Part shown: in pieces, positions 25,312-30,241 of the stretch | Position numbering within the stretch: position 1 is the stretch's first letter | How the letters are laid out: every line of letters begins with the position of its first letter | The notes under the pieces: model-generated | What the model saw: only the letters and a program-made list of their open reading frames with translations | Database searches by the model: none | Told to the model about the DNA's origin: nothing | Made by a program: the position numbers and the translations under genes | NCBI RefSeq assembly: GCF_030867385.1 | Contig: NZ_JAPFBJ010000001.1 | Coordinates: 372,001 to 436,000, forward strand | Origin: Sphingobium sp. DEHP117 | Lineage (GTDB): Bacteria > Pseudomonadota > Alphaproteobacteria > Sphingomonadales > Sphingomonadaceae | Length of the DNA stretch: 64,000 nt | Direction of reading: 5' to 3'

Positions 25312-26644
25312 TTAGCCTGCGAGACGCACCGGCGCGCCGGCTTGCACCTGACGCACGTCTATGGCCTGCGCGAACTGGACGCCCATGCGGTCGTCGACCG
25401 ACCAGCGGGCAACCGCCTCGATCGAGAGACCTTCGGCAAGGTCGATCTGGAAGTGCGTTTCGGGCGGAACGTTCCACAGACCTTCGATCATCGCGCCGCC
25501 GGCGGAGATGTTGCGCACGCGGCCGATATAGCGTTGCCCCAGATGATGGATCGCGACCGAGCGCAGCATCGACTGGCGCGGCGGGCGGCTCGATTTGAAG
25601 CCGGAGGCGCGCGCCTCCATCCCGTCCTGGGCAAAGCGCAGGTTCACTTCCTCGCGCGCGCTGCCCTTGCCATAGATGAAGCCCTGTATCTGCGACACGC
25701 CGAGCGAGCGCACCAATTCCAGCTCGTCATGCGTTTCCACGCCCTCGGCCGTGGTGTCCATGCCGAGCGCGTTGGCGAGGCTGACGATAGACGTGATGAT
25801 CGCGGCATTGCGGTTTCCTGCCGTCGCCGCGCCGCGCACGAAGCTCTGGTCGATCTTGATCTTGTCGAACGGCGCCTTCTTCAGATAGCCCAGCGAGGAG
25901 TAGCCGGTGCCGAAATCGTCTAGCGCGAGGCGCACGCCCAGAGATTTGAGCTGCGCGAACATCCGATCGGTCTTTTCGCCTTCGTTGATGAAGCAGCTTT
26001 CGGTGATCTCCAGCTCCAGCCGATGCGGGGCGAGGCCCGATGACGCAAGCGCGTTCATAACGATGCCTGGCAGGGCCGGGTTGGAAAACTGGAGCGGCGA
26101 GACGTTGACTGCGATGCGCGTTGTGCCCGGCCAGTCCGCCGCAGCGGCGCATGCGGTGCGCAGCACCCATTCGCCCAGCGTATTGATGAGCCCGGCATCC
26201 TCGGCGATCGGTACGAAAATGGCGGGTGAGACCGGGCCGCGTTCAGGGTGGTTCCAGCGCAAGAGTGTTTCGAATCCGACGATCTGGCCGCTCGTGGCGC
26301 TGACGAGCGGCTGATAGACCAGTTCGAGCGCGTCATCTGCGAGCGCCGTGCGCAGATCGTCCTCCAGCTTGCGGCGATCCTCCGCCTCGGCATGCATGAC
26401 CGATGAATAGAAGCGATGCACGCCCCGGCCCGCATCCTTGGCGGCATAGAGCGCGAGGTCGGCATTGCGCACCAGCGCTTCGGCGGTGGTGCCATCATCC
26501 GGGCAGATTGCGATGCCGACGGATGCGCCGATCACCACCTGCGTATTTTCGATGACGTAAGGCTGAGAGAGCGCGGCGATGACCGCATCGGCGAGCACGG
26601 CGAGCTTGGCGCGATCGGCCCGACCGGGCAGCACGACCTTGAAC
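25312..26644 (-). pseudogene. 3' half of a split PAS-GGDEF-EAL-PilZ gene
   Basis: This half starts inside the GGDEF domain (FKVVLPGRADRAKL, then ASVGIAICPDDG) and continues with an EAL domain and a C-terminal PilZ domain. The EAL domain has FETLLRW at the EAL position, EITESCF, and DDFGTGYSSLGYL; the PilZ domain has RRYIGRVRNISAGG-like features. It has no start or ribosome site of its own; the frame runs backward into merR sequence. It joins in frame to the half at 28919-30241 when 26645-28918 and one GAAC copy are removed. ETL in place of EAL may still allow phosphodiesterase activity. PilZ would bind cyclic di-GMP. Confidence 0.88.
26641..26644. repeat. 4-bp direct repeat GAAC (left target duplication)
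   Basis: This copy borders the truncated merR; the second copy is at 28919-28922. Four bases is a usual duplication length for IS1380 elements. Confidence 0.7.
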
Positions 26645-26822
26645 GGTGGATGCGCCGGGCCAGCTCGACGTCGTGAGGCCGGTAATAGCGGCGATTGCCC
26701 GCGCGCTGGAGTGGGCGCAGCGCCGGAAAGCGCGTTTCCCAATAGCGCAAGACGTGCTGCGGAACATTCAGTTCAGCGGAAAGTTCGCCGATCGTGAGAA
26801 AGGCACCGGATTGCTTGGTCAT
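26645..26822 (-). pseudogene. MerR-family regulator, 3'-truncated
   Basis: The first 59-60 residues form a clean MerR DNA-binding domain: FLTIGELSAELNVPQHVLRYWE, FPALRP and NRRYYRPHDVELARRIH. The sequence then jumps into the GGDEF-EAL gene in a different frame and stops after a non-family tail. The cut lies exactly at the GAAC repeat. It begins 61 bases after ihfA, the typical sphingomonad order. The original full gene may still exist elsewhere in the genome. Confidence 0.85.
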
Positions 26823-26882
26823 GCCCCCACTTTACCGGGCAGGCCGATCTCGTCAATCGGTCAGCGCGCGCTGCCGCCTATA

Positions 26883-27179
26883 TCAGGCCTTGGCAACGTG
26901 CTCGCGCATGATCTGGCTCGGCCGGAAGGTCAGCACCCGGCGTGGCGTGATCGGCACCTCTATTCCGGTTTTTGGATTACGGCCGACCCGCGCAGACTTG
27001 TCACGCAGCACAAAGGTGCCGAACCCAGAAATCTTGACGTTCTCGCCGCGCGCGAGCGCCTCGCACATCATGTCAAGTATGGACTCGACAATCCTCGCAG
27101 ACTCCGCGCGGGACAGCCCCACTCTGCCGTTCAGGCTTTCCGCCAGATCAGCGCGCGTCAGCGTTTCTCTACCCCCCAT
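26883..27179 (-). CDS. ihfA: integration host factor alpha subunit
   Basis: The 98-residue HU/IHF-fold protein begins [21 protein letters not shown]. It has the [23 protein letters not shown] core with the DNA-intercalating arm and ends [19 protein letters not shown] bends DNA at specific sites as an alpha/beta heterodimer. I chose ATG 27179; the longer frame enters intergenic and IS sequence. Its usual upstream genes (plsX, fabH) are missing, replaced by the IS end only 66 bases upstream. Expression may therefore depend on the IS, and this may be a second copy. Confidence 0.93.
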
Positions 27180-27245
27180 GATATGGTTCTTTCTCTTCTT
27201 CCCACCTAGAATTGCGCACTTGATTCCCCAAGCGGATGCCTTTTG

Positions 27246-28918
27246 CCCTGCATTCCCCAAGTGGCGTGGCGTTTGAGGTGAAGATCGCCTGTATCCGAGC
27301 GCTAGACAAGGATTTTCTGCCGCAAGCGGCACCTGCGGTCGCGCAGACTGCTGGATCTGGACGGATCAGACCGCGAAGCCGCTGTTTCCTTGCCCAGGGG
27401 CGGCGTTTTTCAGCGCAGCGGACAGATCTGTCCAGCCGCTTTCGTTCAGTTTGAGCGTGGATCGCGATCATGCGCATAGCGGTGGCGCTCGCAATCGGCG
27501 GATAGCGGCGAGGATGGCGCGTACCATCGTGCCGGTGACAGCGACCTCGGCCAGCTGGAAGGTGATGGTGCGGGCGTGACGGACCACACGTGCCCCGATC
27601 TTGATCAGCTTCAGTTGCAGGCTGGTCAACGACCAGTCGGCCATGGCCTCGGGCAGCTCGATGCAGCGCAAGAAGGTGGCCAGGTTGTACGCCAGGGCGT
27701 GCAGTTGCAGCCGCACCTCATTGTCGCGGAACTTCCGGCACGACAGCCGCGTCCAGCGAAAGGCGTATTTGCCCTCTTTGATGTGCTGCTCGGCGGTGCC
27801 GCGCTGGTTGTAGAACCGCACCACCCAGTCCGGCTCCATCGGCAGGTTGGTGACGATGAAGCCGACACGCGGGAACAGTTCGCCCGGATGCCATTCGATC
27901 TTGGCGATCACCCGGCGTTCCTTGTCCCAGGACGCCGCCTGATACTCGAATTCCTCGAAGAACCGCTTGACCTTGGTCAGTGACGGCCGCCCGACAGGGC
28001 GCGTTAGCCGATGCGCGATCTTGTCCTTGAGGACCGCGTTTGCGGGCAGCCGGATGGCGTAGAAGAACCGCGCTTCTTCCAATCGCTCATAGATCGCCGG
28101 GATCGCGTAGGCAGCATCGGCCCGGAAGAACCTGCCACCAAGGTCGCGCTCCGCGTAGCGCGCAATGACGGGGTCGAGAACATCACGCCAGCCATCGGCG
28201 CTGTGGACGTTGCCATGGCGCAGGGCGCAGCGTTCCAGCATCCCGAACTGGTTGAACAGAAAGTTGGGGTGATAGCAGCTACAGTCGAAATGGCCATTCC
28301 AGGCGGACCCTTCCTGGTCGCCATGGGTCGGGCTGACCGAGCTGTCCATGTCCAGAACGATGTACTTCAGCCCGTTACGGTCATGGAACCGGTCGATCCA
28401 TTGCCCGTTCAGGTCGGCCAGCGCGGCACGGTTCCCGGCCAGAGCCAGCGTCTCGGTCTCGAACCGTCCCATCTGCGATGCCGAGGCCGCTTGTGCATCG
28501 ACCGCTCTGCCGCCGACAACTTGGCGCATGACCGGATCGCAGGCGAGACGGTTGGCGTCGTTGACATCCTCGTATCCGGCCAGCCGCCCAAAGACTGATT
28601 GCCGGAACAGGCCGTCGAGCCGATGGACCGTGTTCTTGCCAGAGCGAGTATCGCGCAGCGCCGCTGACGCCAAATCGGACAACCCGAGCGCGTCATCAAG
28701 CTCGCGCATCACCAGAAGGCCGCCGTCGGAACTGAGCTGCGTGCCGCGAAATTCCAGCCGCACGCGAGGGTCGAAATCCACCCGATCTGCCCGTTGCAAG
28801 CCCGCACCCTCTGGGTGATCCATGAAACGCGCCCCTCGCAGCCTTCAACACCATGTTTTATATAGGAAATATAATGGTCAGGACAGCGAAATCAGCGCCT
28901 TACTTGGGAAATGTGGGT
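27246..28918 (-). mobile_element. IS1380-family insertion sequence (copy 2)
   Basis: The 1673-bp element has imperfect 17-bp ends reading inward as ACCCACATTTCCCAAGT (complement of 28902-28918) and CCCTGCATTCCCCAAGT (27246-27262), matching at 13 of 17 positions. A second end-like string, GATTCCCCAAGCGG, lies just outside at 27222. It differs strongly from copy 1 in both ends and transposase. Confidence 0.72.
27468..28823 (-). CDS. IS1380-family transposase (copy 2)
   Basis: The 451-residue transposase has the family start FRGTQLSSDGGLLVMREL, a DMDSSVSPTHGDQEG acidic motif, FRADAAYAIPAIYE and YNQRGTAEQHIKEGK. It appears intact. It is only distantly related to the transposase at 2526-3896, so the two IS elements are different species rather than two copies of one. 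Confidence 0.92.
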   Translation of the reverse strand: MDHPEGAGLQRADRVDFDPRVRLEFRGTQLSSDGGLLVMRELDDALGLSDLASAALRDTRSGKNTVHRLDGLFRQSVFGRLAGYEDVNDANRLACDPVMRQVVGGRAVDAQAASASQMGRFETETLALAGNRAALADLNGQWIDRFHDRNGLKYIVLDMDSSVSPTHGDQEGSAWNGHFDCSCYHPNFLFNQFGMLERCALRHGNVHSADGWRDVLDPVIARYAERDLGGRFFRADAAYAIPAIYERLEEARFFYAIRLPANAVLKDKIAHRLTRPVGRPSLTKVKRFFEEFEYQAASWDKERRVIAKIEWHPGELFPRVGFIVTNLPMEPDWVVRFYNQRGTAEQHIKEGKYAFRWTRLSCRKFRDNEVRLQLHALAYNLATFLRCIELPEAMADWSLTSLQLKLIKIGARVVRHARTITFQLAEVAVTGTMVRAILAAIRRLRAPPLCA

Positions 28919-28922
28919 GAAC
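28919..28922. repeat. 4-bp direct repeat GAAC (right target duplication)
   Basis: This copy borders the IS right end; its partner is at 26641-26644. Confidence 0.7.
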
Positions 28923-30241
28923 TCGTCTCCGCCCAGGCGACCGACCATCCCGCGCTCGCCCACGACATGCTTCAGGCGGCGACTGACTTCGCGCAGCAGC
29001 GCGTCGCCTGCCGGATGGCCCATCGTGTCGTTGACGTTCTTGAAGCGATCGAGATCGAGCAGGAACAGCGCGCATTCGCCGACGCCACCGCGCGCATCGA
29101 TGACGGCCTGTTCCAGCGCCCGCTGCATCTGGACACGATTGGCGAGACCGGTGAGCGAATCGAACTGCGCGAGGCGCGTGACTTCGGCCTGGCTGCGCTT
29201 CATCTCCGTCAGGTCTGAACCGCTGCCGCGAAAGCCCTGGAACTGGCCATATTCGTTGATGACGGGTTGGCCCGAGAGCGCCCACCAGCGCTCATCGCCC
29301 TGGGTCGCGGCGCGCACGGCGACATCGGTGAAGGTGCTGCGCGAGGACAGATGATAGCCGAGCGTGCGGTTGCCTTCATGCTCGTCCACCGCGCCCAGGT
29401 TCAGCAGGTCGGTCAGCTTTTTGCCCAACAGCGCCCCATGCTCTGCGCCCAGCGAGCGTTCGAGTGTGGGCGAGATGTAGGTGAGAGCGCCGGCACGGTT
29501 GGTCTCCCAGAACCAGCCCCGACCGGCCTCCTCATAGTCGGTCAACAGCCGCTGCGCCCTCTGGCTGCGAACCTCGTTCGCCTGCGCCAAAAGATATCGG
29601 TGCCGTTCCGCCCGGGCATGAAGCAGCGTTGATGCGCCCACGCCCAATAGGATAAGGGCCGAAATCAGGTCTCTGCCGGGGGCGCCGAGGCTGACGGTAC
29701 CGAGCGCCATCCCCAAGGCATATGCGAGCGCTGGGGCGCGGACATGACCGAACAGGCTGACCGCAATCACCGCCAGCGCCACCTGCCCGACGAAAGGCGT
29801 GAAGGCTCCGTCGGCCACACTTCTGGGAAGCGCTCCCAGCCACCATGCCGTCAAAAACGCTGTAGCGAGCGACAATGCGCACACGATCGCCATCTGTTGG
29901 GTCGGCCTGAGCCGCAGCAGAAGACCACGGGCCGGCAACAGCCACAGGCTGAGGCTGCAGAGCAGTGCCAATCCCAGAGGAAGAAGCACGCCTATGCTCG
30001 CCGAATCGATCAAGGCTGCTGGGCGGACCGCGCCCAGAATAACGCACAGCTGCGCCGCGATGAACAGCGGCCAGACCTGTGCGATGGCGCGAAGGTCCCG
30101 GGTTGTTAAGGGAGCTGCACCACCGTCCGCCGCCTCAGCCAGCCCTAATGCGGCGAGGAGTTCCGGCCTGCTGGCGGTTGACTCTGAGTCACTTGAGGGG
30201 CGGCGCGCGATCGACATGCCCGAATGCATGGCGCGAAACAT
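28919..30241 (-). pseudogene. 5' half of a split PAS-GGDEF-EAL-PilZ gene
   Basis: This half encodes about four to six membrane helices (residues 50-210), a PAS domain (GWFWETNRAGALTYISPTLE to GFRGSGSDLTEMKRS) and most of a GGDEF domain, ending exactly at the active-site string GRLGGDEF. After the GAAC repeat the frame reads nine foreign codons from the IS and stops at 28892. Joined to 25312-26644 it would give a membrane-bound sensor that makes and/or degrades cyclic di-GMP. A truncated product lacking the second half of GGDEF should be inactive. The start could be 30241 or 30217. Confidence 0.88.

What the first reader, a model, noticed from the sequence alone, without database searches (positions are those of the whole stretch)
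26641..28922. IS1380-family element has carried ihfA and half of merR into a cyclic-di-GMP gene
A 2274-bp segment sits inside a GGDEF-EAL gene. Directly outside both segment borders is GAAC, the 4-bp size expected for IS1380. Removing the segment and one GAAC restores GGDEF followed by KVVLPG in the same frame. The segment is not just an IS: it ends not at the IS's own inner repeat (27246) but about 600 bp further on, inside merR, so ihfA and 5' merR were taken along. ISEcp1, an IS1380 element, moves resistance genes this way; here the passenger is a core nucleoid-protein gene. The surrogate end at 26645 shows no clear match to the IS ends, as also happens with ISEcp1.
Basis: partly seen in the sequence, partly recalled or inferred. 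Interest (0 to 1): 0.85.

Follow-up and report, generated by a model that had tools for sequence, protein, structure and literature searches.

The report
IS1247 carrying ihfA to new sites
A small jumping gene landed next to a bacterium's gene for a DNA-bending protein and then copied that gene along with itself to two new places, in one case breaking a signalling gene; this kind of one-sided gene carrying is known for this element, but the cargo is unusual.

Summary
The finding is real, and its main interpretation holds with corrections. Window 26645-28917 is a 2273-bp unit: IS1247 (IS1380 family, 1671 bp) plus a 602-bp passenger holding complete ihfA and the 5' part of merR. It interrupts a PAS-GGDEF-EAL-PilZ gene. 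The target duplication is 5 bp (TGAAC), not 4. Nine of nine fetched relatives carry the gene uninterrupted. The same genome keeps the source locus (plsX-fabH-IS1247-ihfA-merR, IS1247 between its own TTTGC repeats) and a third, identical unit on another contig, with TTGAA repeats and the same surrogate end. This is a "transposable module" (TMo), already reported for IS1380-family elements and for IS1247 itself (passages and citations). A core nucleoid-protein gene as cargo is, in my judgement, unusual, but nothing shows that it was selected. New member of a known kind.

The parts
26640..26644 (+). left 5-bp target duplication TGAAC
28918..28922 (+). right 5-bp target duplication TGAAC
   Evidence: relatives' gene runs through without the insert
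26645..28917 (-). 2273-bp mobile unit (IS1247 transposable module with ihfA)
   Evidence: identical 2273 bp at two other places in the genome, one of them with its own 5-bp repeats TTGAA around the unit
27247..28917 (-). IS1247, IS1380 family, 1671 bp
   Evidence: 99.8-100% in the 40 listed plasmid records; four identical copies in this genome
27468..28823 (-). transposase, 451 aa
   Evidence: NF033539 IS1380 transposase, 389 bits over cut-off 180; PF13701
27247..27262 (-). IS inner terminal repeat, next to ihfA
   Evidence: CCTGCATTCCCCAAGT against CCCACATTTCCCAAGT at the other end, read
28902..28917 (+). IS outer terminal repeat
26645..27246 (-). 602-bp passenger copied from the source locus
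   Evidence: identical to L007; ends at the same base in the third copy L006
27242..27246 (-). TTTGC (plus-strand reading), one of the two source-site repeats, carried along with the passenger
   Evidence: TTTGC stands on both sides of the IS only at the source locus
26645..26659 (-). surrogate end, CCCGGCGCATCCACC in transposase sense
   Evidence: 8 of 15 bases match the IS end; 2.3% of 3940 positions do as well or better
26883..27179 (-). ihfA, complete, 98 aa
   Evidence: NF001401 137 bits over cut-off 111; TIGR00987 129 over 120.25
26645..26822 (-). merR 5' part (HTH), cut by the surrogate end
   Evidence: PF13411; open frame of 127 aa at the source locus
28918..30241 (-). 5' part of the interrupted PAS-GGDEF-EAL-PilZ gene
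   Evidence: PAS and N-terminal half of GGDEF
25312..26644 (-). 3' part of the same gene (rest of GGDEF, EAL, PilZ)
   Evidence: joined frame

Best explanation
IS1247 first inserted between fabH and ihfA at the source locus, making TTTGC repeats. Its transposase then paired the true outer end with a sequence inside merR that resembles the inner end, skipped the real inner end, and copied IS + ihfA + 5' merR to new sites, making a fresh 5-bp duplication each time. One copy landed in the GGDEF-EAL gene of this window, another on contig C4. Both stop at the same surrogate base, so probably the 2273-bp unit, once formed, moved again as a whole (about 0.7; the stated confidence is for the capture itself). 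Shown: three identical units, their borders, the 5-bp repeats, empty sites in relatives. Inferred: the end-pairing step, the order of the two jumps, replicative copying, and any effect on IHF level or c-di-GMP.
For: Repeats at each site: window TGAAC, C4 TTGAA, source IS TTTGC. The three 2273-bp units are identical. The passenger of both daughters begins with the source repeat (TTTGC on the window strand, GCAAA in transposase sense), which puts the source insertion before the capture. Uninterrupted gene in 9 of 9 fetched relatives; fabH-ihfA without IS in 3 of 3 fetched relatives. ihfA DNA matches three times here; in the 93 other genomes of the genus 85 have one match (three of these also a fragment of 26-34 bases) and 8 none. 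Same pattern with other cargo: exact 5-bp repeats around IS plus passenger in L138, L134, L139 and L030. Surrogate ends resemble the IS end: 41 of 75 bases over five ends against 19.6 expected, 0 of 200,000 draws.
Against: Similarity to the IS end does not single out the end used: four positions in the first 700 bp score higher, one of them 12 of 15, and one of the five ends (L134) is not remarkable alone (6.3% of positions do as well). Two independent captures at the same surrogate end are not excluded. The intact source locus fits copying, but the data cannot separate replicative movement from cut-and-paste followed by repair from a sister chromosome. Three divergence points in shared passengers (L008/L137, L046, L049) show no exact repeat.
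Confidence: 0.96

Rival explanations
1. Variant of the same mechanism: two separate one-ended events from the source locus stopped at the same base of merR because that site is a preferred surrogate end.
For: The surrogate end is IS-end-like (8 of 15). The source copy is still there and could repeat the error.
Against: Four places in the first 700 bp match the IS end better and were not used. In the P450 group the same end (1575 bp) also borders two insertions, L138 and L049, as expected if a formed unit moves again (L049's repeat differs in one base, so this is weak).
Confidence: 0.25
2. The extra ihfA copies came from homologous recombination or a larger rearrangement, and the 5-bp repeats are chance.
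For: Three identical segments in one genome could in principle be spread by recombination.
Against: Borders are exact at IS end and surrogate end, with different flanks and different exact 5-bp repeats at the two sites; fetched relatives have the uninterrupted gene.
Confidence: 0.02
3. Assembly artefact: one unit wrongly placed three times.
For: Identical repeats of 2.3 kb are a classic source of misassembly; no reads were available.
Against: Each copy has unlike flanks and its own 5-bp duplication, which a misjoin would not create. The genome is in 5 contigs with 99.98% completeness.
Confidence: 0.02

Closest known systems
IS1247-dhlB mobilisation in Xanthobacter autotrophicus GJ10 (van der Ploeg et al. 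1995; title seen in reference lists; effect summarised in one passage of PMC4558774; paper itself not held)
   Same: Same element; the IS inserts upstream of a gene, and the region is then mobilised by the IS to a plasmid (passage). That no second IS copy was needed is my recollection.
   Different: There the cargo is a dehalogenase gene under bromoacetate selection; here it is ihfA with no known selection, on a 1.41-Mb Sphingobium contig.
IS1247a-driven transposable module of Paracoccus marcusii (Szuplewska and Bartosik 2009; title seen in reference list)
   Same: Same element (isoform) and same structure class (TMo).
   Different: The passage in PMC3281130 lists it among work done with trap plasmids; here it is read from natural genomes with empty sites. 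The paper itself was not seen.
TMos of ISPme1, Paracoccus methylutens (Bartosik et al. 2008; described in PMC9330008 section 7.3, passages)
   Same: IS1380 family; DNA next to the 3' end is carried; downstream ends resembling the IR; replicative movement suggested there.
   Different: Different element; a strong outward promoter is reported there, not tested here.
ISEcp1 transposition units (PMC9330008, passages)
   Same: IS1380 family, adjacent genes mobilised, downstream region resembling the IR used as end.
   Different: Different element; the cargo named there is resistance genes.

Membership tests
IS1247 (IS1380 family) | sequence and transposase of the family | tested here: met
   99.8-100% over the IS in the 40 listed records, annotated IS1247; NF033539 over cut-off
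IS1247 (IS1380 family) | short target duplication at simple insertions | tested here: met
   5 bp at the source site, and in 8 of 43 copies in all
Transposable module (TMo) | single IS copy plus adjacent DNA at its 3' side moves as a unit | tested here: met
   two daughter insertions and a source locus
Transposable module (TMo) | target duplication encloses IS plus passenger | tested here: met
   TGAAC and TTGAA
Transposable module (TMo) | downstream end resembles the IS inverted repeat | tested here: met
   8 of 15 bases here; 7-9 of 15 in five different ends, jointly far above background, L134 alone not
Transposable module (TMo) | outward promoter of the IS drives the cargo (reported for ISPme1 and ISEcp1) | not testable with these tools
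   a simple scan of 26600-27700 found one sigma-70-like site, at 26856-26829 near merR, none at the IS inner end; other promoter types are not covered
Composite transposon | two IS copies flanking the cargo | tested here: not met
   one IS copy in each unit; the cargo side ends in merR sequence and a target repeat

The most novel reading that the evidence does not exclude
The unit is an incipient transposon that carries a gene for a DNA-bending protein of the kind that many transposition reactions use, so extra IHF-alpha may favour its own spread. Two insertions with the same end and one IHF-like site with one mismatch at the outer IS end (not significant) are compatible with this but do not show it.
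Probability: 0.06. Interest if true: 0.75.

Novelty: new member of a known kind. Interest (0 to 1): 0.42.

Why it matters
It is a clean natural case, with source, two daughters and empty sites in relatives, of a single IS copying a core nucleoid gene. The survey that came with it suggests that IS1247 often travels with neighbouring DNA and gives a small set of mapped surrogate ends, which makes the rule for choosing them testable. PMC3281130 says that many such elements cannot be told by in silico analysis unless they sit in a highly conserved context (passage); shared passengers and a conserved target gene give that context here.

Tried and rejected
Borders as 4-bp GAAC repeats: rejected, since three sites agree on 5 bp. 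Composite transposon: rejected, one IS per unit. Plasmids holding the whole unit: 200 records match, in none does one place cover 80% of it (the tool says that records of this genome may be left out). Own C5 copy (L008): no direct repeat; its inner flank shares 93 bp with a copy on the TKS plasmid (L137), but no matching 5-bp repeat stands at the end of the shared part: unresolved. P450 group: L046 and L049 have no exact repeat at the end of the shared stretch: unresolved, L049 one base off. IHF-like sites in the unit: one with one mismatch, against 0.38 on average in shuffled sequence: not significant. Promoter scan: nothing at the IS inner end, one site near merR. Paper search for ihfA with 'insertion sequence' and 'transposition unit': 0 papers. 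The listings show no title on an IS1247-ihfA unit; that is no proof of absence from print, since the library holds few subscription papers.

Full report
What is there. The window lies in a five-contig genome (3.59 Mb, 99.98% complete). Its genus is Sphingobium by inference: contigs of genus-mates match named Sphingobium records in length and IS position (G021 C5 and NZ_CP020542 at 9968 bp, G042 C7 and NZ_CP005089 at 53908 bp, G087 C68 and S. ummariense RL-3 contig068 at 22406 bp). Window 26645-28917 is a 2273-bp insert in the minus-strand gene for a PAS-GGDEF-EAL-PilZ protein (domains). It consists of IS1247 (27247-28917; 99.8-100% in the 40 listed of 200 matching plasmid records, 139 of the 200 being at 99% or more) and a 602-bp passenger with ihfA (equivalog-level match) and the first 178 bp of merR.

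Borders and empty site. Five bases, TGAAC, stand on both sides. Five bp is also the repeat at the source IS (TTTGC) and around the third copy (TTGAA). Joining the flanks with one TGAAC gives an 883-aa open frame through GGDEF. One search returned nine relatives' loci for this gene (L020-L028; it gives one locus a genome, so some close relatives are represented by other matches), and nine of nine align through the junction without interruption.

Source and third copy. The genome holds the 2273 bp at two more places, with no base difference. Three of three fetched relatives have fabH-ihfA without an IS there; a block just upstream of ihfA that is conserved in them lies on the ihfA side of the IS and so went with the passenger. 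On C4 (L006 5751-8023) there is a second daughter with TTGAA repeats and the same surrogate end. The passenger in both daughters starts with TTTGC, the source repeat, so the IS sat next to ihfA before the capture. A DNA search with ihfA in 94 genomes of the genus, own included, found three full-length matches here; of the 93 others 85 have one match, often over part of the gene, and 8 none; the second matches in three genomes are fragments of 26-34 bases (seven candidates scored a genome). Six HU/IHF-family genes are found in this genome, three of them the ihfA copies.

IS1247 elsewhere. I collected IS1247 copies of 99% identity or more with both ends and at least 30 bases of flank from loci and the window; after removing duplicates by flank there were 43, the four own copies included. 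The set is not random: one search keeps the best 80 of 321 matches, and partial copies were dropped. Eight of 43 have identical 5 bp directly at both IS ends; shuffled pairings give 0.37 on average. Six groups of copies share the same inner flank at different places. In five of the six at least one member has, exactly at the end of the shared passenger, the same five bases as outside the outer IS end: the window (GTTCA in transposase sense, 602 bp), L006 (TTCAA, 602), L138 (GACAA, 1575, cytochrome P450), L134 of S. herbicidovorans (TGTAA, 1795, two glutathione-transferase-like genes), L139 (ATGTG, 1944, sul2), and L030 of Pseudogemmobacter bohemicus (TTTAT, 364, no gene identified), whose sister copy L041 has direct TTGAA repeats. 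Divergence points without such a match: L008/L137, L046 and L049. L049 diverges at the same place as L138, with TTGAA there against TTAAA outside the IS, so it may be a further jump of the same unit with one changed base.

Surrogate ends. The five different ends match the last 15 bases of the IS in 8, 9, 7, 9 and 8 positions (background mean 3.8-4.0); summed, 41 against 19.6, with 0 of 200,000 random draws as high; Fisher p 5e-6, or 3e-5 if either IS end may be matched. For the window's end, 2.3% of 3940 positions do as well; for L134 6.3%, so that one alone is unremarkable. The two scorings do not always choose the same place. So some of the copies without direct repeats are probably modules too, but which ones is uncertain for a single copy, and deletions, recombination or draft assembly may explain others. 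Similarity does not decide alone: in the source passenger a 12-of-15 match at 27218-27232 was not used.

How it works. The simplest chain: insertion next to ihfA; transposase pairs the outer end with an IS-end-like stretch in merR; IS and passenger are copied to a new site; the formed unit moves once more. The pairing model is the one given in a review for ISPme1 and ISEcp1 (PMC9330008, passages of section 7.3). Copying rather than loss is inferred from the intact source locus.

Consequences. The GGDEF domain is cut just after its GGDEF motif, and EAL-PilZ is separated from its original start. Whether ihfA is overexpressed is unknown; the simple promoter scan shows nothing at the IS end.

Known or new. 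A passage in PMC4558774 says that IS1247 inserted upstream of dhlB raised bromoacetate resistance and that the region was mobilised by the IS to a plasmid; that this needed no second IS copy is my memory of the 1995 abstract, and the paper is not held. An IS1247a-driven module is named in a 2009 title. So the mechanism and even the element are known; the cargo, the three-locus record and the survey are the additions. The literature searches were read as listings, plus passages of four papers (the passage is a reference list only).

Noticed in passing
L138, L038, L046, L049 (IS1247 inner flank): Four copies in different genomes share the same passenger start; in L138 it holds a cytochrome P450 gene and IS plus 1575 bp is enclosed by GACAA repeats.
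   Followed up: partly
L134, L133, L012: Three IS1247 copies in G021 (S. herbicidovorans by contig match), two on a 2.92-Mb contig and one on a 9968-bp contig, share a passenger start; in L134 TGTAA repeats enclose 1795 bp with two glutathione-transferase-like genes.
   Followed up: partly
L139, L057: IS1247 next to the same passenger in G175 (family of the window's genome) and Luteovulum azotoformans; in L139 it holds sul2 and ATGTG repeats enclose 1944 bp. Described only.
   Followed up: partly
L008 6112-7782: Own C5 copy of IS1247 has no direct repeat; its inner flank shares 93 bp with an IS1247 copy on a Sphingobium sp. TKS plasmid contig (L137) and then diverges.
   Followed up: partly
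27218-27232: A stretch just upstream of ihfA, its CTTGGGGAATCA also in relatives L108 and L109, matches the IS inner end in 12 of 15 bases and lies within 30 bp of the insertion point. Chance or target choice is open.
   Followed up: partly
L008 1-4048 and 11567-12331: Contig C5 holds repeated segments; the same 254-aa transposase-like frame, IS6 family from memory, occurs three times.
   Followed up: no
L046: TTCAT follows the shared passenger and also stands three bases outside the outer IS end, so a repeat with a 3-base offset is possible.
   Followed up: no
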